Shown piece after piece: positions 23,071-35,248 of a stretch of 64,000 bases of DNA; within the stretch, counting starts at the first letter, position 1, and each line of letters starts with the position of its first letter. Under the pieces are notes generated by a model. That model saw only the letters and a program-made list of their open reading frames with translations, was not told the DNA's origin and did no database searches. Made by a program: the position numbers and the translations under genes. The stretch comes from Amycolatopsis sp. FBCC-B4732 (GTDB lineage: Bacteria > Actinomycetota > Actinomycetes > Mycobacteriales > Pseudonocardiaceae): contig NZ_CP095376.1 in NCBI RefSeq assembly GCF_023008405.1, positions 310,001 through 374,000 on the forward strand, in the 5' to 3' direction.

Positions 23071-23175
23071 GCGGATGCCGGACGCTCTCGCATTCCACGG
23101 TTTCGGCGGAATGGGGTCATGGGGGCTTGCAGCGCGACCGGAGGCAATTTCGATCTCTGTTCGGGGAGGCTCCGC

Positions 23176-26100
23176 GTGCGTCGGAAACAAAAAGCGGCGG
23201 CGATCGCGCTGGCGGCCGGAATGGCGTTTCCCGTTCCCGCGGTCGCCGTGGCCGCACCGGCTCCCGCGGCGGACGGCCAGTCGGTCACGCTCATCACCGG
23301 CGACCGCGTCCGGGTGCTGCCCGGGGCCCGCGGGGCGGCGGCCGCGGTCGTCGTCGAGCCCGGAGCGGGCCGAACCGGGATCGGCTTCCTGCGCGAGACG
23401 AGCACCGGCGGCCGCCCGGGCGACGTCACCGTGGTGCCCGCGGACGCGCTGCCGCTGCTGGCCGCCGGGCGGCTCGACCCGCGCCTGTTCGACGTCTCCG
23501 AACTGCTGCGCCAGCACCTGGCCGACCCCGAACCGGGCCTGCCGCTGATCATGACCTACGCCGCCGGGGCCCGGCCGGCCGCGGCGGCCGCCACGACAGT
23601 CCGGGACCTGCCCAGCGTGCGCGGGGCGGCCGTGCGCCAGGACCGGCGGCGCGGCGCGGAGTTCTGGACCTGGCTCACCGCGTCTCCGGGCACGCTGCGG
23701 CCCGGCATCGGCAAGGTGTGGCTGGACGGCCTGGCCACCCCCGCCCTCGACGTCAGCGTGCCGCAGATCGGCGCCCCGGCCGCCTGGCAGGCCGGCTACA
23801 CCGGCAGCGGGGTCACCGTCGGGCTGCTCGACACCGGCGTCAAGGCCGACCACCCGGACCTGGCGGGCAAGGTCGTGGCCGCCCGCGACTTCACCGGGAC
23901 CCGCCCGGACGCGAGCGACGACCTCGGCCACGGCACGCACGTCGCGGGCATCATCGCCGGCACCGGCGCCGCCTCCGGTGGCCGCTACCGGGGCGTGGCG
24001 CCGGACGCGCGGCTGATCAGCGGCAAGGTGTGCGTCGCCTACGGCTGCCCGGAGTCGGCGGTGATCGCCGGCATGGAGTGGATCGCGCCGCAGGTGCCGG
24101 TGGTCAACCTCAGCCTCGGCGGCGACGCGACCGACGGCACGGACCCGTTGTCCCAGGCGGTGAACACCCTCACCGCGCAGTACGGCACCCTCTTCGTCGC
24201 CCCGGCGGGCAACGACCGGACGCTCGACCTGCCCGAGCCGCTGCCGGTCGTCGCGCCCGCCGCGGCCGACGCCGCGCTCGCCGTCGGCAGCGTGTCCGCG
24301 ACCGACGTGACCAGCCCGTTCTCGAACCGCGGGCCGCGCCTCGGCGACTACGCGGTCAAGCCCGACCTGTCCGCGCCCGGTGAAGGCATCGTCTCGGCAC
24401 GGGCCCCGGGCACGCGGGACGGCGACGCGGCGCCGGTCGACGCCGACTACGCCCGGCTGTCCGGCACGTCGATGGCGGCGCCGCACGTCGCCGGCGTGGC
24501 CGCGCTGCTGCGGCAGGAGCACCCGGACTGGACCGCCGGCCGGCTCAAGCCCACGTTGACCAGCACCGCGCAGCCCACCGGCGACGTCGCGGGTCAGGGC
24601 GCGGGCCGGGTGGACGCGGCCCGCGCGGTCACCCAGCAGGTCACCGCCACCACCGGGAGCCTCAGCTACGGCTTCTTCGCCTGGCCGCACACCACGCCGG
24701 TGACGAAGACCGTGACCTACCGCAACGACGGGGCCACCGCCGTCACCCTCGCGCTCACCAGCTCCGACGGGCTCGTCACGCCGGCCGCGGCCACCGTGGT
24801 GGTCCCCGCGCACGGCACCGCCGGTGTCGGCGTCACCCTCCGGCCCACGGCGGCGGCGACCGGCCCGCACAGCGGCCGGCTGAGCGCGACGGCGCCCGGG
24901 ATCGCCGTGCAGACCGCGTTCGGCGCCACCCTCGAGCGCGAGAGCTACGACGTCACGGTCCGGCTGATCGGCCGGAGCGGCGGGCCCGGCGCGGGCATCG
25001 CCAAGCTCGTCAGCACCACGACCGGGGAAGCGTTCGGCGTCCGGCCGATCGGGGCCGACGGCGTCGCCGTGGTCCGGGTGCCCAAGGGCAGCTACGACCT
25101 CAACGCGTTCGACGTCTCGGGCCAGGCGGTGACCCTGCTGTCCAAGCCCGGGGTCGCGATCACCGCGAACACCTCGTTCACGCTGGACGCCCGCACGGGC
25201 AAGCCGGTGCGCGCGGTGGTCGACCACGCGGACGCGCACCTGCAGTCGGGCGAGCTCGGCCTGGTGTCGGGGAACCCGGCAGGCGACCGCACCAGCACGC
25301 TCGCCTGGCTCGTCCAGCCCGGCAACGAGCTGTTCGCCGCCGGCTCCGGCCGCCAGGTCACCGACCACACGTACGCGATGTACCTGCGGGCCACGCTGGC
25401 CGCCCGCGAGCCGGGCACCGATCCGGCCGGGTACGTCTACCAGCTGGCGCTGCTCGAACGCGGCCGCGTGCCCGCCGACCCGGTGTTCCGGGCGCGCGAC
25501 CGGGACCTCGCCGTCGTCGACGCCCGCTACCGCACCCAGGGCGGGACCACGGACGGCCTGCGCGTCGACTACGCGTCGTTCGGTTTCCCGGGCGCCGACA
25601 GCGGCGCGTACCAGATCCTGCCGCACACGCTGCCGAGTCGGCGGACCGAGTACTACACGCCGGGACCGTCGGTGAGCTGGCAGCACATCCTCGCGGTGTA
25701 CCCGCCGGACCTGACCGACTCGGAGAACCAGTTCTCCTACCGGACCTACCGGCCCGGCGCCCAGCGCGCGGACTGGAACAGCGGCCCGGTGGGGCCCGCG
25801 TTCGGCGCGCCGCGGGACGGCTGGGGCGTGCTGCGCGCGGGTGACCAGCTGACCTACGCGATCCCGGTGGTCTCGGGCAGCGACCCGGAGCAGTACAGCG
25901 CGCCGCCGGTGGGCCTGTCCGGCACGGCGACGCTGTCGCGCGGCGGGGTGGAGCTGGGCACCAGCCCCGATCCGGCCTTCGGGGCGTTCACCGTGCCCGC
26001 CGGCGCCGGCCCGCTCACCCTGCGCTCCGTCGCCACCCGCAGCGTGCCGTGGTCGCTGCTCGGCACCCACGTCGACGTGGCGTGGACGTTCCGCGACACC

Positions 26101-26442
26101 GGCGAGGCCGTTCCGCCGCCGCTCATGGTGGTCCGGGCGCAGGGCGCGCTCGACGACGACAGCCGAGCCCCGGCGGGCCGGCCGTTCCTGCTCGCGCTCA
26201 CGGCGCAGCGGCAGCCGGGGGCGGGCGCGTTCCGCCTCGCGGACCTGCGGGTCGAGACCTCCGCGGACGACGGCACGACGTGGGCGGACGCGCACGCGAT
26301 CCGGCTCGGCGACGGCGGCCTGGCGGTGGTGCGCAACCCGGCGGGGGACAGCTTCGTCTCGCTGCGCATCACGGCCCGCGACACCGAGGGGAACAGCGTC
26401 ACCCAGACCGTGCTCAGGGCGTACCGGACGACGTCAGGGTGA
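23176..26442 (+). CDS. Secreted subtilisin-like serine protease (S8), about 1088 residues
   Basis: The GTG at 23176 was chosen because GGGGAGG (23163-23169) is well placed and a Sec-type signal peptide begins directly (RRKQKAAAIALAAGMAFPVP). An upstream ATG at 23119 adds 19 unlikely residues. The S8 domain holds Asp219 (GLLDTGVKADHPDL), His252 (GHGTHVAGI), the oxyanion Asn346 (PAGND) and Ser432 (SGTSMAAPHVAG). About 600 residues of beta-rich C-terminal domains follow. Streptomyces has similar large exported subtilases. The 3' end overlaps the opposite membrane-protein gene by 29 bases. Confidence 0.92.
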   Translation: MRRKQKAAAIALAAGMAFPVPAVAVAAPAPAADGQSVTLITGDRVRVLPGARGAAAAVVVEPGAGRTGIGFLRETSTGGRPGDVTVVPADALPLLAAGRLDPRLFDVSELLRQHLADPEPGLPLIMTYAAGARPAAAAATTVRDLPSVRGAAVRQDRRRGAEFWTWLTASPGTLRPGIGKVWLDGLATPALDVSVPQIGAPAAWQAGYTGSGVTVGLLDTGVKADHPDLAGKVVAARDFTGTRPDASDDLGHGTHVAGIIAGTGAASGGRYRGVAPDARLISGKVCVAYGCPESAVIAGMEWIAPQVPVVNLSLGGDATDGTDPLSQAVNTLTAQYGTLFVAPAGNDRTLDLPEPLPVVAPAAADAALAVGSVSATDVTSPFSNRGPRLGDYAVKPDLSAPGEGIVSARAPGTRDGDAAPVDADYARLSGTSMAAPHVAGVAALLRQEHPDWTAGRLKPTLTSTAQPTGDVAGQGAGRVDAARAVTQQVTATTGSLSYGFFAWPHTTPVTKTVTYRNDGATAVTLALTSSDGLVTPAAATVVVPAHGTAGVGVTLRPTAAATGPHSGRLSATAPGIAVQTAFGATLERESYDVTVRLIGRSGGPGAGIAKLVSTTTGEAFGVRPIGADGVAVVRVPKGSYDLNAFDVSGQAVTLLSKPGVAITANTSFTLDARTGKPVRAVVDHADAHLQSGELGLVSGNPAGDRTSTLAWLVQPGNELFAAGSGRQVTDHTYAMYLRATLAAREPGTDPAGYVYQLALLERGRVPADPVFRARDRDLAVVDARYRTQGGTTDGLRVDYASFGFPGADSGAYQILPHTLPSRRTEYYTPGPSVSWQHILAVYPPDLTDSENQFSYRTYRPGAQRADWNSGPVGPAFGAPRDGWGVLRAGDQLTYAIPVVSGSDPEQYSAPPVGLSGTATLSRGGVELGTSPDPAFGAFTVPAGAGPLTLRSVATRSVPWSLLGTHVDVAWTFRDTGEAVPPPLMVVRAQGALDDDSRAPAGRPFLLALTAQRQPGAGAFRLADLRVETSADDGTTWADAHAIRLGDGGLAVVRNPAGDSFVSLRITARDTEGNSVTQTVLRAYRTTSG

Positions 26443-26974
26443 CGACGGCGAGCGGGACGGCGAAGGCGGCGGTGGTCAGCAGCCGGAGCACCCGGCGGTG
26501 GGCCAGCCACTCGCCGTCCCAGCCGCCTTCGGTGTCGTAGCGCGTGTTCGCCGTGGTCATCAGGGCCCGGCCGAGCCCGAACCCGGCGCCCGCGGCCAGC
26601 GCGGCGGGCAGCGGCGCGGTGAGCGCCACGGCCACCGCGGCGACGTAGGGCAGGCCGCTGGGCAGGTAGGTGCGGACGCCGGTGCCCATCTCGAACCCGA
26701 ACTGCAGCGGGCCGAGGTGCCGGCCCAGCCGGAAGACGGTGTCGGGCACCAGCCGCCGGTTCTCCGGCAGCCGGAACGACCACACGCCGGTCTCCCGCAG
26801 CAGCACGGCGGCCAGCGCCACGGCCACCACGCCCCAGCGGACGGCGACCGGCAGGGGTGCGCGCAGCAGCGATCCCGCCACCACGAGCACGAGGGCGGTG
26901 AGGGCGCCCCCGCAGACGAGTCCCGCGCAGAACGCCAGTGTCGGTGTGCCCCGCCAGACCGGCGAGCTCAGCAC
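26414..26974 (-). CDS. Polytopic membrane protein of the Mau-like cluster
   Basis: The GTG at 26974 gives 186 residues with about five hydrophobic segments. A polar central stretch (ENRRLVPDTVFRLGRHLG, then QFGFEMGTGVRTYLPSG) looks conserved. It could belong to a membrane redox or biogenesis protein of the CcdA/DsbD type, but no CxxC is seen and I do not recognise the family. It is the last gene of a minus-strand cluster with a six-Cys Tat substrate and a MauD-like thioredoxin. Its end overlaps the subtilase gene. Confidence 0.6.
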   Translation of the reverse strand: MLSSPVWRGTPTLAFCAGLVCGGALTALVLVVAGSLLRAPLPVAVRWGVVAVALAAVLLRETGVWSFRLPENRRLVPDTVFRLGRHLGPLQFGFEMGTGVRTYLPSGLPYVAAVAVALTAPLPAALAAGAGFGLGRALMTTANTRYDTEGGWDGEWLAHRRVLRLLTTAAFAVPLAVVTLTSSGTP

Positions 26975-26992
26975 GGAGGCCGAGTTCCGGCT

Positions 26993-27169
26993 TCAAACGG
27001 AGCCGCTGGTGGCGAAGCCGGCGGCCGCGCACAGGACGAGCCACGCACTCGGCAGCAGCCAGCCCGGCGGCGCGAGCACGGCCGCGCCGGCCACGGCCAG
27101 CGCCGCCACCACGAGCCCGCCGGCGATCGTCAGCGGGTGCCAGCGGCGCCGGGGGAGCGCCGCGGTCAG
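26993..27169 (-). CDS. Possible small two-helix membrane protein
   Basis: After the six-Cys gene a frame encodes RRRWHPLTIAGGLVVAALAV, a second hydrophobic stretch (LLPSAWLVLCAAAGF) and a stop at 26993. No ATG is available. A CTG at 27169 would overlap the previous stop as CTGA, giving 58 residues; GTG codons further in give about 39. The hydrophobic pattern and position inside a compact operon favour a real gene. The start is uncertain, and it is too short to classify. Confidence 0.4.
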   Translation of the reverse strand: MTAALPRRRWHPLTIAGGLVVAALAVAGAAVLAPPGWLLPSAWLVLCAAAGFATSGSV

Positions 27170-27738
27170 AGCTCGGCCCGGCAGATGGTCAGGTAGGTCT
27201 GCCCGGTGCTGCCGTCGCCCCAGAACGTCGAGAACCCGTCCGAGCAGCGGTAGACCCTCTTGTCCGGCGTCGTCCACCGCCACGCGTTCTTGGCGATCGT
27301 CTGGCCGCAGGTGTTGGACAGCGGCTGGTGGTCGACCTGCACGCCGTTCTCGTTCCACGTGCCGTACTTGTGCCAGCCCGCTTCGCAGTACGTGCTGCCG
27401 CGCCAGTAGCCGCCGAAGCAGGCGGCGTAGGTGTTGACGTAGGTGCCGCTGGTGTCGAGCAGCTCGGGGTAGCCGGTGGCGTAGGCGTCCCGGCAGTCGT
27501 TGCGGTCCCAGCCCTGCATGCCGTCGGGGCCGGTCTCGGCGTTCGCCCGCCGCAGCCGCGACAGGCCGGACCAGTCGAGCGCGGTCGCGCCGATCGTCAG
27601 CACCCCGAGCGCCACCGCCCGCAGGAACGTCCGGCGGGCGGTGGTCCCGGGCAGCTTCGACCCCGCCCGCGTGCGCCCGGCGTCCGGCTCGGCCAGGTCA
27701 AGCTCCGGAATCCGCGCCAGCTCGAGTGCCACCGACAT
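27166..27738 (-). CDS. Tat-exported six-cysteine protein (methylamine dehydrogenase light-chain-like position)
   Basis: The 190-residue protein has a twin-arginine signal (ARRTFLRAVALGVLTIG, Arg35-Arg36) after a 34-residue leader, then a mature domain of about 120 residues rich in Trp, Tyr and Gly. It has six cysteines at 82, 107, 118, 144, 165 and 186, enough for three disulfides. Size, Tat export and MauD/MauE-like neighbours recall the methylamine dehydrogenase small subunit MauA, but MauA has about twice as many cysteines and its motifs are not seen. The start overlaps the MauD-like gene by 41 bases. Function unknown. Confidence 0.75.
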   Translation of the reverse strand: MSVALELARIPELDLAEPDAGRTRAGSKLPGTTARRTFLRAVALGVLTIGATALDWSGLSRLRRANAETGPDGMQGWDRNDCRDAYATGYPELLDTSGTYVNTYAACFGGYWRGSTYCEAGWHKYGTWNENGVQVDHQPLSNTCGQTIAKNAWRWTTPDKRVYRCSDGFSTFWGDGSTGQTYLTICRAEL

Positions 27739-28213
27739 CCCCTCCTGCCGTCGGGCCGGCCCAGCCGGCCAAGGTCGTGTCCACGTCGCCCGCGCGGACC
27801 GGGAGCCGCAGCCGCCGGACGCGGCCGTCCTCGTCGGCCAGCATCAGCACCGGCGGCGAGAGGTGCGAGACCGAGCGCCACGCTTCGCCGTCCGAGACCA
27901 CCGGCAGGCCGCGGGCCAGGTCCTGCCACGCCGACGCCGGTTCGTGGGTCAGCAGCGTCGTCCCGGCGCCCAGCTCGGCCAGCCGGTCGACGACGGTCAG
28001 GCAGAGCGGGCAGCCGGAGTCGACGGCCGCCACGACCCGGCCGGCGAACCGCGGCCCGAGGACGACGTCCGGCGGCGCCGCCACGAAGCCGTCGGACGTC
28101 CGGGTGACGATCCCGCGCAGCAGCCGCACCTCGCGCAGCACCGCCGCGAGGCCGAAGAAGAGCACGGCGATCGCGGCCCAGGTGATCAGCAGCACCGCGG
28201 TCGACGTCGTCAT
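27698..28213 (-). CDS. MauD-like membrane-anchored thioredoxin-fold protein
   Basis: The 171-residue protein has one N-terminal membrane helix (about 6-25) and an extracytoplasmic domain with a CPLC redox motif (Cys68, Cys71) in AAVDSGCPLCLTVVDRL. This arrangement matches MauD, which helps form disulfides in the methylamine dehydrogenase small subunit. It probably oxidises or isomerises the six-Cys protein encoded immediately downstream. The start overlaps the stop of the preceding gene (ATGA at 28210-28213), so the two are translationally coupled. Confidence 0.75.
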   Translation of the reverse strand: MTTSTAVLLITWAAIAVLFFGLAAVLREVRLLRGIVTRTSDGFVAAPPDVVLGPRFAGRVVAAVDSGCPLCLTVVDRLAELGAGTTLLTHEPASAWQDLARGLPVVSDGEAWRSVSHLSPPVLMLADEDGRVRRLRLPVRAGDVDTTLAGWAGPTAGGDVGGTRAGADSGA

Positions 28214-28887
28214 CGGCGCTGCCAGCCGACGTCGAGCTCGTCCAGCCAGTCGAGCCGCTCCCGCTCGGTCTTCGCCGCGGAGTCCGCGAGGTGGACCTCG
28301 GCCACCCCGGCCGCGCAGCCCAGCACGAACGACCGGGCGTTCGTCTTCCACACTTCGCCGTGCTTCGTGCGCGCGCCGGCGTGCGGCGGGATCAGCGCGG
28401 CGGCCTCGCGCGGGGCGGGGATGGACAGCGAGCCGTGGTCGCGGACCACGACCACGAGGTGCTCGCCGGCGGGGTCGAGCAGGGTCGCCGGCCGCGGCGT
28501 GACGACCATGCCGCCGACCTGGTCCTCGATGCGCAGGGAGCCGAACAGGCCGGCCACGCGGTCGCGGTGCGGAGCCGGACCGGCGTACACCGTCATCAGC
28601 TCGTGGTAGTCGCCGAGCAGGGTGGCCACGGACGACTGCCCGTCGGCCGCCTCGGCCACGACGACCTCGCGGCCGTGCACGAGCAGGCGTTCGCGGGTGC
28701 GGGCCGGTGCGACGCGGGTGCACGCGAAGTCGTGGTAGCCGCGCGACCCGATCTGGAAGCCGGTGCCGTACGAGCCGCCGACGAACCGGATTCCGGCGAC
28801 GACGTGGGAAACCGGGGCCCCCGCGGAAAGCCCGACGGTGACGCGGCCGCCGCTCGGCGCCGTCAACCGCAGTGTCTGGATCGCCAT
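28210..28887 (-). CDS. Hypothetical protein, first gene of the Mau-like cluster
   Basis: The 225-residue protein has no signal peptide or membrane helix. It shows alternating short beta-strand patterns (VTVGLSAGAPVSHVVAGIRF, LLVHGREVVVAEA, HLVVVVRDHGSLSIP) and ends with an acidic, charged tail. I do not recognise the family. It may be a cytoplasmic partner, for example a Tat-substrate chaperone, but nothing in the sequence proves this. It shares a divergent promoter region with the MauE-like gene and overlaps the MauD-like gene by ATGA. Confidence 0.65.
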   Translation of the reverse strand: MAIQTLRLTAPSGGRVTVGLSAGAPVSHVVAGIRFVGGSYGTGFQIGSRGYHDFACTRVAPARTRERLLVHGREVVVAEAADGQSSVATLLGDYHELMTVYAGPAPHRDRVAGLFGSLRIEDQVGGMVVTPRPATLLDPAGEHLVVVVRDHGSLSIPAPREAAALIPPHAGARTKHGEVWKTNARSFVLGCAAGVAEVHLADSAAKTERERLDWLDELDVGWQRR

Positions 28888-28901
28888 CGGACCTCCGATT
28901 C

Positions 28902-28916
28902 GGCGGATATTCCGCC
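28902..28916. promoter_or_regulatory. Palindrome GGCGGATATTCCGCC in the divergent promoter region
   Basis: This near-perfect dyad (GGCGGA, TAT, TCCGCC) lies 14 bases upstream of the 28887 gene in the AT-richer region between it and the MauE-like gene. It could be an operator controlling both arms of the cluster. The binding protein is unknown. Confidence 0.4.
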
Positions 28917-29027
28917 TTGCGAGACTAACCGACGAATTCGGCTCCGGTCACGATTGTTCGGCCATCGGGCGGCGTGCCTGCCGCCGAATGGGGACGGCAA
29001 TTCTGCCAGCGAATAACATACCGCTCC

Positions 29028-29495
29028 GTGAATGTTTTCTGGACGGCGGCGATGACCGTTTTGTCCGCGACGGGGGCGATTCTTCTGGTCGCGGCCGGGC
29101 TCGGGCACGCGGTGCGCCACCGGGAGCACCGCGCGGTGCTGCGGGCGCACCGCCTGCTGCCCCCGGCGCTCGCCGTCCCGACGACGCTGGTGGAGCTGCT
29201 GCTCGGCGCCGCCGTCCTGCTGGTCCTGCTCGTGGTTCCGGCGGCCGCCACGCCGGCCGTGCTCGCGCAGGCTGTCTTATACGTCGCGTTCGCCGGTTAC
29301 GCGGGCGTGCTGCGCGTGCGACGACCGGGCGTGCCGTGCGGCTGCTTCGGCACCGAGGCCGTTTCGTGGGCCGTGGTGGCGAGAGCGGCCGTGCTCGCCG
29401 CGGGCAGCGCCGGCTGCGCGGCCCTCGGGACGGCGGACCCGCTGTGCGTGGCAGCGGGCGCCGTCCTCGCGATGGCGGCCTACCTGTTTCGCTGA
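29028..29495 (+). CDS. MauE-like integral membrane protein
   Basis: From the GTG at 29028 (ATG at 29052 is an alternative; neither has a clear ribosome-binding site) the product has about 155 residues and four hydrophobic helices. The signature is VAAGLGHAVRHREH, followed later by RRPGVPCGCFGTE, in which the CGC motif is typical of MauE/DoxX-like redox-associated membrane proteins. MauE supports maturation of the disulfide-rich MauA. Here it is divergent from the MauD-like and six-Cys genes and probably belongs to the same functional unit. Confidence 0.75.
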   Translation: MNVFWTAAMTVLSATGAILLVAAGLGHAVRHREHRAVLRAHRLLPPALAVPTTLVELLLGAAVLLVLLVVPAAATPAVLAQAVLYVAFAGYAGVLRVRRPGVPCGCFGTEAVSWAVVARAAVLAAGSAGCAALGTADPLCVAAGAVLAMAAYLFR

Positions 29496-29499
29496 CGCC

Positions 29500-29733
29500 T
29501 CAGGCGGAGCGTTCTCCGAGGCGGGGGAACGGCTTCGTGGAGAACAGGACCTCCACCGAGACCTCGAAGAACTCCGCGATCCGCAGCGCCAGGTAGAGGC
29601 TCGGGCTGTACTCGCCGCGTTCGAGGTAGCCGATCGTCTGGTAGTGCACGCCGAGGGCCTCCGCGAGCTGGCGGCGGGAGATCGACCGCTCCGCGCGCAG
29701 CATCGCGATCCGGTTGTAGACGACCTCACTCAT
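29500..29733 (-). CDS. Small XRE-family (HTH_3) transcriptional regulator
   Basis: The 77-residue protein is almost entirely a Cro/CI-type helix-turn-helix: SRRQLAEALGVHYQTIGYLERGEYSPSLYLALRIAEFF. Such short regulators often control neighbouring ABC exporter genes. Its ATG lies two bases after the permease stop, so it is the third gene of the exporter operon. The palindrome AATGTAG-N8-CTACATT at 31543-31564, in front of the operon, is a good candidate for its autoregulatory operator. Converges with the MauE-like gene, four bases apart. Confidence 0.9.
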   Translation of the reverse strand: MSEVVYNRIAMLRAERSISRRQLAEALGVHYQTIGYLERGEYSPSLYLALRIAEFFEVSVEVLFSTKPFPRLGERSA

Positions 29734-29735
29734 GA

Positions 29736-30587
29736 CTACCCCACACGCTGCATGGCCTTCTCCCGCCGTTCGGCCACCGACGAACCCGCTTCGCGCCGCG
29801 CCATGCGGCGGAGCAGGACCGGGGCCAGTGCCAATCCGATCACGGCCCACGCGACGAGCACGGCGAGGGTCGGCAACGGCCGCCACGACTGGCCGATTTC
29901 GACGACCACCGCGGTGTCCGGCAGCAGCGCCGAGCGCATGCCGAGCCCCAGCCAGTACATCGGGAACACCTGCGCGACGCCCTGCACCCAGCCCGGCAGC
30001 GCGGTGACCGGGTAGAAGATCCCCGAGATCGCGCCCAGGCCCATGATCGGCAGCGTGATCAGCGCGATCGACCGCGGGCTGTTGGTCAGCGAGCCCAGCG
30101 CGGCCCCGAGCGGCAGGGTCGCCACCAGCCCGAGCGCCAGCACCCACACCAGGTGCAGGTACGACCAGCCGCCGTCCGGGGCCAGCGAGTCGAACAGGAA
30201 CAGGCACGGGATCAGCACCAGCAGGATCGAGGTGACCTGCGCGATCGCCACCGCCGTCGTCTTCCCGACCAGGTAGCCGAGCATGCCGTTCGGCGTCGCT
30301 TTCGCGCGCAGCAGCGTGCCGTCCTCGCGGTCGATGGCGAGGTAGCCCGCCGTGCTGTTCAAGCCGTTGAACACGATCCCGGCGCCGAGCACGCCGGGCA
30401 CGGTGGCCGCGCCGAGCGAGAAGCCGGTGCCGGGCAGGGTGGCGTTGCGCATGAAGAACAGCGCGCCGAGGAAGAGCGCGACGAAGACCAGCTGCCCGAC
30501 GACGTCGTCCCGGTTGGTCCAGGTCTGCTTGAACTCGATCCAGCCGCGCGCCAGGCCGGTGCGCAGCGCGGCGGTCTTGGCGTTCAT
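29736..30587 (-). CDS. ABC-2 type exporter permease (DrrB-like)
   Basis: The ATG at 30587 overlaps the ATPase stop (ATGA). The 283-residue protein has six hydrophobic helices and the ABC-2 pattern: RGWIEFKQTWTNRDDVVG near the start, GIVFNGLNSTAGYLAIDRED with the following basic stretch, and GIFYPVTALPGWVQG. It forms the membrane channel for the adjacent ATPase. Related DrrB-type permeases export drugs or secondary metabolites. The substrate is unknown, and no biosynthetic cluster is adjacent. Confidence 0.88.
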   Translation of the reverse strand: MNAKTAALRTGLARGWIEFKQTWTNRDDVVGQLVFVALFLGALFFMRNATLPGTGFSLGAATVPGVLGAGIVFNGLNSTAGYLAIDREDGTLLRAKATPNGMLGYLVGKTTAVAIAQVTSILLVLIPCLFLFDSLAPDGGWSYLHLVWVLALGLVATLPLGAALGSLTNSPRSIALITLPIMGLGAISGIFYPVTALPGWVQGVAQVFPMYWLGLGMRSALLPDTAVVVEIGQSWRPLPTLAVLVAWAVIGLALAPVLLRRMARREAGSSVAERREKAMQRVG

Positions 30588-31510
30588 CGCGCACCCGCTT
30601 CCTGGAGGCCGAGCTCCGTTTCGCCGGCGGTCTCGGCGCGGTGGACCAGCGTCATGTAGGTGTCTTCCAGCGACGCCCGCCGGACCTCGAGGTCCGCGAC
30701 CGCCTCGCCGTGCTGCTTGAACAGGTCGTACACGTACTTCGTCGCTTCGGTCGTCGAGTGCACGAAGCGCTGGTCGCCGACGCTCCAGCGGACTTCGGCC
30801 TCCCCGGCGATCTGCCGGCTCAGCTCGTCGGCCGAGCCGTCGGCGACGATCCGGCCGCCGTTGAGGATGAGGATCCGGTCGGCCAGCTTCTCGGCCTCGT
30901 CGAGGTCGTGCGTGGTGAGCAGGATCGTGGTGTCGAGCTCGTCGGAGAGCCGGTGCACGAGGTCGTGGAACTCGCGGCGCGCCTCGGGGTCGAAGCCCGC
31001 GGTCGGCTCGTCGAGGAACAGCAGCTCGGGCCGCCCGACGATGCCGATCGCGACGTCGAGCCGCCGCCGCTGGCCCCCGGAGAGCTGCTTGAGCTTCTTG
31101 TGCGCGTGGTCGGTCAGCCCGACCGCGCCGATCAGCTCGTCGACGTCCCACGGCCGCGGCATCGACGGCGTCGAGTACGGCGCGTAGTACCGGCCGAGGT
31201 GCGCGAGCAGCTCCCGGACGCGCCACTTCCCGTGGTCGCGCCAGGACTGGAGGACGACCCCCAGCCGCGCCCGCCAGTCCTCCCCGCCGTGCGCCGGGTC
31301 GGTGCCCAGCACGCTCACCTCGCCGGCCGACCGCATGCGGAAGCCTTCGAGGATCTCGATCGTGGTCGTCTTGCCCGCGCCGTTGGGCCCGAGCAGGCAG
31401 ACGACCTCACCGCGGTACGCCTCGAACTCGACCCCGTGCAGCACGTCGTTCGCGCCGTAGCGCATGCGTAGCCCGCGCACGCGGACCACCGGATCGGCTG
31501 GATCTCTCAT
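30584..31510 (-). CDS. ABC transporter ATPase (DrrA-like)
   Basis: The 308-residue ATPase has Walker A GPNGAGKT at 41-48, signature LSGGQRRRLD at 143-152 and Walker B LLFLDEPTAGFDPEA at 163-177. The ~90-residue C-terminal extension after the H-loop is typical of DrrA-type export ATPases. It should power efflux through the coupled permease. It is the first gene of a three-gene operon (ATPase, permease, XRE regulator) with ATGA and two-base junctions. The palindromic operator lies about 33 bases upstream. Confidence 0.92.
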   Translation of the reverse strand: MRDPADPVVRVRGLRMRYGANDVLHGVEFEAYRGEVVCLLGPNGAGKTTTIEILEGFRMRSAGEVSVLGTDPAHGGEDWRARLGVVLQSWRDHGKWRVRELLAHLGRYYAPYSTPSMPRPWDVDELIGAVGLTDHAHKKLKQLSGGQRRRLDVAIGIVGRPELLFLDEPTAGFDPEARREFHDLVHRLSDELDTTILLTTHDLDEAEKLADRILILNGGRIVADGSADELSRQIAGEAEVRWSVGDQRFVHSTTEATKYVYDLFKQHGEAVADLEVRRASLEDTYMTLVHRAETAGETELGLQEAGAR

Positions 31511-31657: not shown

Positions 31658-31745
31658 GCCGTGCCTCTGACCTGCGCCGCGACGCCCGGTGAAAAGTTTC
31701 TCCCGGGTCCGGGAACTTGACCCGCGGTCATCCGGTTCGCCGGGC

Positions 31746-32060
31746 ATGGGTACTTGGCTGGCGCTCGCGCTCCCGGGTGGCGTCGTGGTCCTGCTGGTCG
31801 TGGCCGCGATCGAACTGCGGCCGCGCAAGGACGGCTCGCGCTTCAAGGCGCGGCTGTCCGCGACGTACGTCGAGGAGACGACCGCGTTCCTCTACGGCAC
31901 CAAGCGGCGTGAGCTGGAACACCGGGAAACGATGTCGATGCTCGTCGAGCAGGACGCCGAAGGGGCGCCTCCGTGGCGTGACGTGGACTTGGACGCCGGG
32001 ATCGCGAAGATTCGGGCCCGTTCGGACCCGCCGGGGCCGGAAAACGGCCAGCTACAGTGA
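31746..32060 (+). CDS. Small DUF6191-like membrane protein, first gene of the cobG operon
   Basis: The ATG at 31746 gives 104 residues: one hydrophobic N-terminal helix (MGTWLALALPGGVVVLLVVA), then a charged cytoplasmic tail with KRRELEHRETMSMLVEQDAEGAPPWRDVDLDAG. This layout matches actinobacterial DUF6191 proteins, whose function is unknown. cobG begins four bases after its stop, so it is probably translated from the same mRNA as the precorrin enzymes. A link to cobalamin synthesis is inferred from position only. Confidence 0.7.
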   Translation: MGTWLALALPGGVVVLLVVAAIELRPRKDGSRFKARLSATYVEETTAFLYGTKRRELEHRETMSMLVEQDAEGAPPWRDVDLDAGIAKIRARSDPPGPENGQLQ

Positions 32061-32064
32061 CCCC

Positions 32065-33141
32065 ATGCCGACCCCAGCACGCGTGCGAGCCGACGCGTGC
32101 CCTGGTGTTTTCGCACCGCACGACGCCGCCGACGGGCCACTCGCGCGGGTGCGGCTGCCCGGCGGCACGATTTCCGCGGTCCGGCTGCGCGCGCTGGCCG
32201 ACGCCGCCGAGGCGTGCGGCGACGGCGACCTCCACCTCACTTCGCGCGGCAACGTCCAGCTGCGCGGCGTCACCCGCCCCGGTCTCGCCGAGCGGCTGAC
32301 CGATGCCGGCCTGCTGCCTTCGCCGTCGCACGAGCGGGTCCGCAACGTCCTCGCGTCGCCGTCGAGCGGGCTGCGCGGCGGGCTCGCCGACGTCCGGGGC
32401 CTGGCCGCCGCGCTCGACCTCGCGCTGTGCGCGGCGCCGGAGCTGGCCGCGCTGCCCGGGCGGTTCCTCTTCGCCTTCGACGACGGACGCGGCGACGTCG
32501 CCGGGGAAGGCGCCGACGTCTGCTGGCGGGCGACCGGTCCGGCCGAGGGCACGCTGCTGCTCGCGGGCGGCGACACCGGCCGCCGGGTGGCGCGCGCGGA
32601 CGCCGTCGCCGCGGTGCTCGACCTCGCGCGGGAGTTCGCCCGCGTGCGCGGGACCGCCTGGCGCGTCGCCGAACTCGACGACCCGGCTTGGCGCGGGACA
32701 CCGGTCGCCTTCGCGGACGCCGAAGTCGTGGCCGGGGTGTTCTCGCGGGACGACGGCGGTCTCGCGGCGGGGGTCGTGCCGCGTTTCGGGCAGCTTTCGG
32801 CCGCGCAGGCGCGGGCCCTGGCGGAGTTCGGGACGGCGGTGGTCACGCCGTGGAAGTCCGTGGTCCTGCCGGACGTGCCCGCGGACGTCTTCGAGCGGCT
32901 GGGTTTCGGCGCGACCGCACTGGGCACGACCGCCTGCATCGGCCGGCCCGGCTGCGCGAAGTCGCGCGCCGACGTGCGCGCCGACGCGGTGTTCCGGCCC
33001 GGGCTGCGCGCGCACTTTTCGGGCTGTGAACGGCGGTGCGGCAAGCCGTCGCAGTCCCATGTGGACGTTGTGGCGGAAGCGGACGGATATCGGGTCGACG
33101 GCCGTTGGGTGCCGCTCGACGAGGTGAAGGGAACCCTGTGA
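32065..33141 (+). CDS. cobG: Precorrin-3B synthase CobG
   Basis: The ATG at 32065 gives 358 residues of the nitrite/sulfite reductase-like family. The [4Fe-4S] ligands are Cys291 and Cys297 ([14 protein letters not shown]) and Cys321 and Cys325 (SGCERRCGK). The substrate-side motif [14 protein letters not shown] is typical of CobG. Using molecular oxygen, it hydroxylates precorrin-3A to precorrin-3B, the step that defines the aerobic cobalamin route. Its stop overlaps the cobH GTG start (GTGA). Confidence 0.95.
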
Positions 33142-33761
33142 TCGACTACCTGCGGGACGGTGCCGAGATCTACCGGCACTCGTTCGCCACGATCCGCGAG
33201 GAAGCGGACCTGGCGATCCTGCCCGACGACGTGGCCGGGCTGGCGGTCCGGATGATCCACGCCTGCGGCATGGTCGATCTGGTCGACGACCTGCGCTACA
33301 CCCTCGACGTCGTCGAGTCCGGCCGCGCCGCGCTCGAAGCGGGCGCGCCGATCCTGTGCGACGCGCAGATGATCGCCAGCGGCGTCACCCGCCGTCGCCT
33401 GCCCGCGGCCAACGAAGTGCTGTGCACGCTTTCGGACCCGAGCGTGCCCGGGCTCGCGGAGCGGATGGGCACCACGCGCTCGGCGGCGGCCCTGGAACTG
33501 TGGCGCGACAAGCTCCCCGGCTCGGTCGTGGCGATCGGCAACGCGCCGACCGCGCTGTTCCGCCTGCTGGAAATCCTCGACGAAGGCGTGGGCGCGCCCG
33601 CGGCGATCATCGGCGTGCCGGTGGGCTTCGTCGGCGCCGCCGAGTCCAAAGTGGAACTGGCGAAGCGCGCCCCGGCCCCGTACCTGGTGGTGCACGGCCG
33701 GCGCGGCGGCAGCGCGATGGCCGTGGCCGCCATCAACGCACTCGCGAGCGCCGAAGAATGA
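33138..33761 (+). CDS. cobH: Precorrin-8X methylmutase CobH
   Basis: The GTG at 33138, overlapping the cobG stop, gives 207 residues, the usual CobH length. His41 in [12 protein letters not shown] is the conserved residue that moves the methyl group from C-11 to C-12, forming hydrogenobyrinic acid. [32 protein letters not shown] and [13 protein letters not shown] are further family motifs. The stop overlaps the cobIJ start (ATGA), so cobG, cobH and cobIJ form a coupled operon. Confidence 0.96.
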
Positions 33762-35248
33762 GCCTGGGCAAGCTGTACGGCGTCGGCCTCGGCCCCGGCG
33801 ACCCGGAACTGATGACGGTCAAAGCGGCGCGGCTGATCTCCGAGGCGTCGGTGATCGCGTACCACAGCGCGCGGCACGGCCGCAGCATCGCGCGTTCGGT
33901 CGCCGAGCCGTACCTGCGCGAGGGGCAGATCGAGGAGAAGCTCGTCTACCCGGTCACCACGGAGACGACCGACCACCCGGGCGGTTACGAGGGCGCGATC
34001 GCGGACTTCTACGAGCTGAGCGCGAAGCGGCTGGCGGAGCACCTCGACGCGGGCCGCGACGTCGTCCTCCTCTGCGAGGGCGACCCGTTCTTCTACGGCT
34101 CGTACATGTACATGCACGAACGGCTTTCCGGCCGCTTCGAAGCGATCGTCGTCCCGGGGGTCACGTCGGTGAGCGCGGCGTCGTCGGTCCTCGGCCGCCC
34201 CCTGGTCCAGCGCGACGAGGTCCTGACGGTGCTCCCGGGCACCCTCCCGGCCCCGGAACTGGCCCGCCGCCTGGCCGACACCGACGCGGCGGCCGTCCTG
34301 AAGCTGGGCCGCACGTTCTCTTCGGTGCGCGAAGCGTTCGCGGAGGCGGGAAAGCTCGACGACGCGGTGTTCGTCGAGCGGGCGACGTGGGGGCAGCAGC
34401 GGATCGAGCCGCTGGCTTCGGTGGACCCCTCGACGGTGCCGTACTTCTCGCTGGCTCTGCTGCCTTCGCCGGCTTACGCTTCGCGCCAGTCGCCTGCTGT
34501 CGCTCCGGCTTCTGCCGGGTCCGGTGGCGAAGTCGTGGTGGTCGGCCTCGGTCCCGCGGGTCCTGAGTGGCTGACGCCGGAGGCTTCGGCGGAGCTATCC
34601 GAGGCCGAGCACATCGTCGGGTACGGCCCGTATGTCGCGCGGGTGCCCCAAAAGGCGGGCCAGCAGCGGCACGCGTCGGGCAACCGCGTGGAGGCGGACC
34701 GCGCTCGTGAGGCCCTATCCCTGGCCGCGGCCGGTGCCCGGGTGGCGGTGGTGTCTTCGGGCGACCCGGGCGTGTTCGCGATGGCGTCGGCGGTCCTGGA
34801 GCAGGTCGCGGCGGGCCACGGCACGGGCGTCCGGGTCCGCATCGTCCCGGGCGTGACGGCGGCCCAGGCGGCGGCGTCCCGGGTGGGCGCACCGCTGGGG
34901 CACGACTATTGCGTGCTTTCGCTGTCGGACCGCTTGAAGCCGTGGGAGATCATCGAGAAGCGCCTGGACGCGGCGGGAGCGGCGGATCTCGTGCTGGCGC
35001 TGTACAACCCGGCTTCACGCACTCGGACGACTCAGCTGGCCGACGCTCGTGCGGTCCTGCTCCGCCACCGCGCGCCGTCGACTCCGGTGGTGGTCGCGCG
35101 GGATGTGGGCGGCGCGGAGGAGGAGATCCGCGTCACGACCCTCGGGGACCTCGACCCGTCCACAGTGGACATGCGCTGCCTGCTGATCGTGGGCTCGTCC
35201 CGAACCCGCGCGGAGAACGGTATCGTCTGGACCCCGCGCAGCTACTGA
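33758..35248 (+). CDS. cobIJ: Bifunctional precorrin methyltransferase CobI-CobJ
   Basis: The 496-residue fusion has two tetrapyrrole methyltransferase domains. Residues about 1-240 form CobI (precorrin-2 C20-methyltransferase): [18 protein letters not shown] and [20 protein letters not shown]. After a Ser/Ala/Pro linker, residues about 257-496 form CobJ (precorrin-3B C17-methyltransferase, ring contraction): [17 protein letters not shown] and [19 protein letters not shown]. Both use SAM. Such fusions are common in actinobacteria. The gene ends the operon and is followed by a 14-bp stem-loop (35255-35294). Confidence 0.96.

What the first reader, a model, noticed from the sequence alone, without database searches (positions are those of the whole stretch)
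26414..29495. Mau-like redox cluster built around a Tat-exported six-cysteine protein
A twin-arginine six-Cys protein of 190 residues is coded next to a MauD-like CPLC thioredoxin, a divergent MauE-like membrane protein, another polytopic protein, a possible two-helix peptide and an unknown 225-residue protein, mostly with overlapping ends. In methylotrophs MauD and MauE serve only the disulfide-rich small subunit of methylamine dehydrogenase, also a Tat substrate. No large subunit, amicyanin or MauG is present here. The cluster may make a new disulfide-rich, perhaps cofactor-bearing, exported protein.
Basis: partly seen in the sequence, partly recalled or inferred. Interest (0 to 1): 0.75.

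Follow-up and report, generated by a model that had tools for sequence, protein, structure and literature searches.

The report
Selenium-containing MauF in disulfide-protein cluster
Two neighbouring genes that looked separate are most likely one selenium-containing membrane protein, a relative of the poorly understood MauF of methylamine-eating bacteria, and it sits with MauD, MauE and an exported cysteine-rich protein in many actinomycetes, which points to a selenium-dependent machine for maturing an exported disulfide-rich protein.

Summary
The cluster is real. In 42 of 42 loci found through the six-Cys Tat protein, MauD, that protein and the polytopic protein keep order and strand; the 225-aa protein is in 38, MauE within the flank in 31. 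But the "two-helix peptide" and the "polytopic protein" are one gene, in frame across a TGA (window 26993-26995) with conserved protein on both sides in the window and 41 of 42 loci. Selenocysteine is the reading: selA is in 40 of 40 host genomes, the own genome has selD, tRNA-Sec, selA and a selB-like gene, synonymous sites after the TGA are constrained, and hairpins there are conserved. The fused protein is homologous to MauF, the TGA falling on MauF's SPCG cysteine. In other actinomycete classes this codon is TGA in 10 of 10 selA-positive and Cys in 3 of 3 selA-negative classifiable genomes. MauF is not in the 119-entry selenoprotein inventory I read. Selenium itself, the exported protein's function and any cofactor are unproven; homology of its mature part to MauA was not shown.

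The parts
26414..27169 (-). Selenoprotein MauF (251 aa, mostly helical, about 7 membrane helices by eye). Likely CTG start at 27169 in a 4-nt CTGA overlap with the six-Cys stop codon; start codon is inferred
   Evidence: in-frame across TGA, conserved both sides; homology to MauF; AF2 pLDDT 91.2, pTM 0.90
26993..26995 (-). UGA codon read as selenocysteine (residue 59), at the position of the MauF SPCG cysteine
   Evidence: TGA in window and 41 of 42 loci; TGA/TGC column in distant homologues; hhalign
26950..26984 (-). SECIS-like element: two stem-loops starting 8 nt after the UGA
   Evidence: consensus fold and pair counts on 33 of 43 rows; synonymous-site constraint in the 14 codons after UGA; folding energy alone not significant
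27166..27738 (-). Tat-exported six-Cys protein (CYS6), the presumed substrate of the cluster
   Evidence: no significant Pfam match in the window protein; 3 of 123 homologues touch DUF7268, best E 0.00042
27698..28213 (-). MauD-like membrane-anchored thioredoxin with CPLC; overlaps CYS6 by 41 nt
   Evidence: present in 42 of 42 loci
28210..28887 (-). 225-aa protein of unknown family (P225), no signal peptide by eye; overlaps MauD start by 4 nt
   Evidence: present in 38 of 42 loci
29028..29495 (+). MauE/DoxX-type membrane protein with CGC, divergent from the rest (start codon uncertain)
   Evidence: Pfam PF07291 E 1.1e-16; within the flank in 31 of 42 loci

Best explanation
The cluster makes and matures an exported disulfide-rich protein with a selenium-dependent Mau machine. 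The gene at 26414-27169(-) is a Sec-containing MauF: UGA 26993-26995 is decoded as Sec with the help of a hairpin directly downstream and the genome's sel genes and tRNA-Sec (strongly supported by comparison, not by experiment). Sec59 sits where MauF of methylotrophs has its single conserved membrane Cys (shown by alignment). Inferred mechanism: the six-Cys protein is exported by Tat; on the outer face MauD (CPLC) makes or reshuffles its disulfides; MauF, a DsbD/CcdA-like membrane protein with one reactive selenol, and MauE (CGC) exchange electrons between MauD and the membrane or cytosol so that the disulfides are set correctly. P225 would be a cytoplasmic helper of unknown role. That selenium gives a fast, over-oxidation-resistant step is general knowledge applied here, not tested.
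For: TGA with conserved frame on both sides in window and 41 of 42 loci, SGSx[TGA]SxNSA or GxNSA, plus L008 and both copies in L089, of which L007 is the first; invariant G51, S55-S57, U59, N62-A64 over the 38 of 43 rows aligned. The Ser at +4 is TCG, TCA or AGC (28, 10, 4 of 42), so amino acids, not only bases, are kept. selA over cut-off in 40 of 40 host genomes against 226 of 396 in the phylum sample. selA/selB/selD genes within the flank in 17 of 42 loci of 7 genera in differing arrangements; ARAGORN finds tRNA-Sec in 14 of 20 loci scanned. Own genome: selD, tRNA-Sec, selA and an adjacent selB-like gene. MauF homology: hhalign 93.5% E 2.2e-7 direct, 98.6% and 99.4% through the intermediate family. 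Codon at the MauF Cys position is TGA in 8 and TGC in 2 distant loci printed. Of 18 matched genomes 14 could be classed: Sec form 11 of 11 selA+, Cys form 0 of 3 selA+ (Fisher 0.0027). Synonymous constraint after UGA: 9 of 11 columns against 14 of 106, MWU 6.4e-5. Hairpins: 97.7% of cells paired, 0 of 500 shuffles reach the covariation score. Pfam DsbD_2 touches one distant member (E 3.8e-5, 24.1 bits, just under the 24.9 cutoff).
Against: No selenium or peptide measured. Hairpin folding energy is not special: z 0.20 to -1.77 in 9 sequences, median rank 0.44 within the gene. The hairpins were derived from the same alignment; double changes are few and the +3 slid control has as many (3 pairs, 5 cells), and L048-L051 were not in that alignment. 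No full-length Cys form among the 120 listed of 214 close homologues (candidates capped); Cys forms come only from other classes and methylotrophs. L041 has lost the Sec segment yet its genome has selA. Direct MauF match is moderate (93.5%). Mature six-Cys protein does not align to MauA. Foldseek gives no PDB match at E 0.001 for either model. MauE is not in the flank of 11 of 42 loci. The electron path, and whether MauF reduces, oxidises or isomerises, is inference.
Confidence: 0.8

Rival explanations
1. The two ORFs are separate, translationally coupled membrane proteins and TGA is an ordinary stop.
For: The protein collection holds the second half as a stand-alone protein, 193 aa or shorter in all 120 rows listed; in 35 of the 42 rows with the TGA (window and 41 loci) a possible start codon lies 18 nt after it.
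Against: Codons between TGA and that 'start' are conserved as protein; in L043, L044, L045 and L048-L051 the first start lies 24 to 147 nt after the TGA although the residues before it are still conserved; the codon lines up with a Cys codon in homologues; selA 40 of 40.
Confidence: 0.04
2. TGA is read through, but as another residue or by low-level suppression, without selenium.
For: Folding energy of the downstream hairpin is unremarkable.
Against: Position equals a Cys in homologues, and the 3 genomes with Cys lack selA; tRNA-Sec and sel genes beside the cluster in part of the loci.
Confidence: 0.03
3. Selenoprotein MauF is right, but the cluster builds a quinone-type (Trp-derived) cofactor enzyme like methylamine dehydrogenase rather than only a disulfide-rich protein. 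(Not exclusive of the best explanation.)
For: W153 and W155 invariant, W77 and W122 near-invariant. Tat signals resemble MauA's, clearly for the second Cys-rich family (89% on the signal region), hardly for the six-Cys protein (6.6%).
Against: No MauB in G000; MauG not searched; mature domain does not align to MauA.
Confidence: 0.12
4. The exported protein is a RiPP-like secreted product, as proposed in print for other MauE/MauD clusters of Streptomyces. (Not exclusive of Sec-MauF.)
For: decRiPPter paper reports 3 candidate families with mauE, one also with mauD, precursors with at least 8 Cys (PMC7794033, passages read).
Against: 190-aa Tat protein with a well predicted C-terminal half (pLDDT about 90 over residues 91-190 with one dip); no exporter or peptidase among the core genes. 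The S8 protease neighbour is in the flank of 20 of 42 loci.
Confidence: 0.06

Closest known systems
MauF of methylotrophs (Paracoccus denitrificans mau cluster, L075)
   Same: Homologous membrane protein, same reactive position (SPCG Cys aligned with Sec59), next to MauE and MauD
   Different: Sec instead of Cys; a six-Cys protein in the place of MauA; no MauB in the genome; no amicyanin or MauG among the cluster genes by eye
MauE/MauD (methylamine dehydrogenase accessory proteins)
   Same: Pfam MauE match; MauD-like anchored thioredoxin with CxxC
   Different: Window MauD gives no significant Pfam or NCBIfam match; MauE lies on the other strand
DsbD/CcdA superfamily (Pfam DsbD_2)
   Same: Sub-cutoff matches of two distant Sec-MauF proteins (E 3.8e-5 and 0.046); membrane thiol chemistry implied
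   Different: One conserved Sec/Cys, no second conserved Cys in 38 sequences; the window family itself does not match DsbD_2
Known prokaryotic selenoproteins (119 families/subfamilies, PMC13188914 Table 1)
   Same: UGA, downstream hairpin, sel genes, Cys homologues
   Different: No MauF-type entry; of the NCBIfam selenoprotein models only TsoB is touched, by 1 of 38 members at E 0.098
decRiPPter MauE/MauD candidate families
   Same: MauE, once with MauD, beside a Cys-rich small protein in Streptomyces
   Different: Selenoprotein and MauF not mentioned in the passages read

Membership tests
Selenoprotein | In-frame UGA with conserved protein on both sides | tested here: met
   window and 41 of 42 loci, 38-row alignment
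Selenoprotein | Cys at the same position in homologues | tested here: met
   TGC in L060, L063, Cys in L067, MauF SPCG
Selenoprotein | Sec machinery in the same genome | tested here: met
   selA in 40 of 40; own selA, selD, tRNA-Sec, and a selB-like gene beside selA just under its cutoff
Selenoprotein | SECIS hairpin after UGA | tested here: inconclusive
   for: conserved hairpins and synonymous constraint; against: energy not significant, few double changes
Selenoprotein | Selenium found in the protein | not testable with these tools
   needs 75Se or mass spectrometry
MauF | Sequence homology to MauF | tested here: met
   hhalign 93.5% direct, 99.4% for the intermediate family
MauF | Linked to MauE and MauD | tested here: met
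   MauD 42 of 42, MauE in the flank 31 of 42
MauF | Needed for methylamine dehydrogenase | not testable with these tools
   role of MauF in methylotrophs is recalled, not read
Methylamine dehydrogenase light chain (MauA) | Homologous mature domain | tested here: inconclusive
   no alignment of the mature part (0.25%; Tat signal only), MauA profile of 5 sequences
Methylamine dehydrogenase | Large subunit MauB in the genome | tested here: not met
   PF06433 none in G000, control rings in the Paracoccus plasmid W01
DsbD/CcdA fold | Fold or profile match | tested here: inconclusive
   DsbD_2 sub-cutoff in two distant members; no clear PDB match

The most novel reading that the evidence does not exclude
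Actinomycetota widely run selenium-dependent Mau machines in which Sec-MauF is the catalytic centre, each tailored to its own Tat-exported Cys-rich protein (6 Cys here, 18-25 in a second family). Methylotroph MauF does the same with Cys, so MauF is the missing redox enzyme of quinone-cofactor protein maturation, and the actinomycete substrates may themselves carry a new Trp-derived cofactor.
Probability: 0.2. Interest if true: 0.92.

Novelty: new variant of a known kind. Interest (0 to 1): 0.82.

Why it matters
It adds a membrane selenoprotein family that a 2026 inventory of 119 families does not list, hidden because gene prediction stops at the UGA. The Cys-to-Sec swap names one reactive residue in MauF, whose role in methylamine dehydrogenase maturation is, to my knowledge, open, and so makes it testable by a single-residue mutant. 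It also defines, with genome evidence, families of exported Cys-rich actinomycete proteins that each keep a dedicated maturation machine.

Tried and rejected

Rows dropped: from the fused alignment L011, L014, L017, L018 (near copies) and L041, leaving 38 of 43; from the hairpin alignment L010, L011, L014, L017, L018, L041 and L048-L051, leaving 33 of 43; from the synonymous test 10 further near relatives, leaving 28; from the Sec/Cys count 4 of 18 genomes (G138 and G628 look spurious, G536 and G622 unclear or too short). P225 stays without family.
Full report
Observation. The window lies in a 10.19-Mb one-contig genome (G000); its nearest named relatives by this protein are Amycolatopsis. The six-Cys Tat protein has no significant Pfam or NCBIfam match (3 of 123 homologues touch DUF7268, best E 0.00042), 115 homologues at E 0.001 or better in the protein collection, and constant features: RR, six Cys, W122, W153 and W155 invariant in 35 diverse sequences.

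Neighbourhood. A scan of genome contigs with the six-Cys alignment, which knows nothing of the other genes, gave 42 loci. Profiles built from the window's genes found MauD and the polytopic protein in 42 of 42, the 225-aa protein in 38 of 42 and MauE within the fetched flank in 31 of 42; MauD, six-Cys and polytopic protein keep order and strand in 42 of 42, and P225-MauD-six-Cys-polytopic in 38 of 42. MauE was not sought elsewhere in the other 11 genomes.

One gene, not two. Reading upstream of the polytopic ORF, the first stop is TGA in the window and all 42 loci; in the window and 41 of 42 it is the stop that ends the two-helix ORF, flanked by SGSx before and SxNSA or GxNSA after. The exception is L041 (Arsenicicoccus piscis), where the stretch around that codon is missing. 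In the 38 sequences aligned (of 43) G51, S55, G56, S57, residue 59, N62, S63 and A64 are invariant. The supposed start codon of the second half is not constant: 18 nt after the TGA in 35 of 42 rows, 24 to 147 nt in the other 7, while the residues before it remain. The Ser at +4 is coded TCG, TCA or AGC (28, 10 and 4 of 42), so selection acts on protein. The start lies in a 4-nt overlap with, or a few bases after, the six-Cys stop in most loci; in the window this would be CTG at 27169.

Why selenocysteine. selA (TIGR00474) is over cut-off in 40 of 40 genomes that hold the 42 loci, against 226 of 396 genomes drawn across the phylum. In the genus sample of 36, 6 of 18 selA-positive and 0 of 18 selA-negative genomes hold the six-Cys gene (Fisher 0.019). 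In 17 of 42 loci of 7 genera selA, selB or selD genes (labels mine, from sequence) lie in the flank, in different orders and directions, and ARAGORN finds tRNA-Sec in 14 of the 20 loci given to it. The own genome has selD, tRNA-Sec and selA together and a selB-like gene directly after selA, 241.8 bits against a cut-off of 242.25. L089 holds selA, selB, selD, tRNA-Sec and two copies of the MauF, MauD, six-Cys and P225 genes with one MauE, both mauF copies with TGA. Formate dehydrogenase, the usual reason for Sec, shows no TGA in the 4 of 21 matches listed for G000.

RNA element. The 14 codons after the UGA are the most synonymously constrained stretch of the gene: 9 of 11 testable columns at p 0.05 against 14 of 106 elsewhere, Mann-Whitney 6.4e-5, best of 113 windows beginning at the UGA (28 of the 38 rows). 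Consensus folding of 33 of 43 rows gives two hairpins, the first 8 to 10 nt after the UGA with a 6-nt loop; 97.7% of cells pair, three pairs show double changes, and none of 500 shuffles reaches the covariation score. Against it: sliding the partners by +3 gives as many double changes, though only 29.8% of cells then pair, the structure comes from the same alignment, and folding energies alone are ordinary. I call it SECIS-like.

Identity: MauF. A phylum search with the fused alignment matched 18 of 396 genomes. The distant ones are mostly about 220-aa proteins with WSP-x-GxSML or like, where x is TGA in L058, L059, L061, L064, L065, L066, L068 and L069 and TGC in L060 and L063; L067 reads Cys, L062/L081 reads TGA, and G729 has one TGA. 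Real mau clusters were then fetched: MauF of Paracoccus, Methylobacterium and Indioceanicola carries STWSPCGYSS. Profile comparison: window family against MauF 93.5%, E 2.2e-7, 173 columns; window family against the distant family 98.6%, E 1.1e-15; distant family against MauF 99.4%, E 6.4e-22; Sec59 falls on the MauF Cys. Of the 18 genomes I could class 14: the Sec form is in 11 (G000 and 10 others), all selA-positive, the Cys form in 3 (G461, G572, G795), all without a selA match (Fisher 0.0027). Four (G138, G536, G622, G628) were set aside; all four have selA. In the regions fetched around the distant MauF genes, MauD or MauE profiles match in 10 of 11 (L078-L088, all but L087), and a second family with 18-25 Cys and a mostly twin-arginine signal is in 9 of those 11 (L078, L079, L080, L082-L086, L088); L081 has another 10-Cys Tat protein between MauD and MauF.

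Mechanism. Shown: gene content, UGA, Sec/Cys column, twin-arginine signal, six conserved Cys, C-x-x-C in 43 of 44 MauD matches and C-G/A-C in 31 of 32 MauE matches. Inferred: Tat exports the six-Cys protein; MauD sets or reshuffles disulfides outside; MauF's single selenol and MauE's Cys pair connect MauD to the membrane or the cytosolic thiol pool. One distant MauF just misses the DsbD_2 cutoff, which fits membrane thiol transfer. MauF has one conserved reactive residue, so the partner must be another protein, most simply MauD or MauE.

What is known. Section 7, parts 1 and 2 of 3, of PMC13188914, with its Table 1 of 119 families and subfamilies, lists no MauF or methylamine entry, and the words MauF, methylamine, CcdA, Actinobacteria do not occur in its main text. 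Passages of PMC12013277 and PMC9312934 show none either. Of Pfam models, at most 3 of 38 members of the fused family match any one (DUF543, best E 0.0081), the best single match being SoxE_N at 0.0007; of NCBIfam models, at most 1 of 38 (best E 0.02), among them the selenoprotein TsoB at 0.098. PMC5029168 (passages) lists Amycolatopsis vancoresmycina DSM 44592 as having an orphan SelD; the genome of NRRL B-24208 searched here has selA (G809). PMC7794033 (passages) had noticed MauE and MauD beside Cys-rich proteins in Streptomyces and read them as possible RiPP clusters. That MauE and MauD are essential in Paracoccus is from the title of its reference 66; the role of MauF is recalled only.

Verdict. 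The finding is real and better than described: a conserved, very probably selenium-dependent Mau-type maturation cluster. Open: selenium by experiment, the direction of electron flow, the role of P225, and what the exported protein does.

Noticed in passing
window 23119-26442 (+): Subtilase (Pfam S8, E 4.8e-57) converging on the MauF gene; an S8 gene lies in the flank in 20 of 42 loci of 5 genera, so it may belong to the wider module in some genera.
   Followed up: partly
L078-L080, L082-L086, L088: A second family of Cys-rich, mostly twin-arginine proteins (18 to 25 Cys) sits with Sec-MauF (Cys-MauF in L086) and MauD or MauE in other actinomycete classes; probably another substrate family.
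   Followed up: partly
L089 (G239): Two diverged copies of the core cluster lie near selA, selB, selD and tRNA-Sec, both with TGA in mauF.
   Followed up: partly
L041: Arsenicicoccus piscis lacks the segment of MauF that holds the Sec codon and has Pro-Thr repeats at the end of the six-Cys protein; selA is still in the genome.
   Followed up: partly
L030 10546-13824: About 3.3 kb separate the six-Cys gene from the selenoprotein gene, elsewhere mostly overlapping or close; content not examined.
   Followed up: no
L012 genome (G809): Amycolatopsis vancoresmycina DSM 44592 was tabled in PMC5029168 as an orphan-SelD organism; strain NRRL B-24208 searched here has selA and the Sec-MauF cluster.
   Followed up: partly
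window 31717-35248 (+): Cobalamin-type genes: nitrite/sulfite reductase-like half domain, precorrin-8X methylmutase, tetrapyrrole methylase.
   Followed up: no
window 29500-31510 (-): ABC transporter ATPase and an XRE-type HTH domain next to mauE.
   Followed up: no
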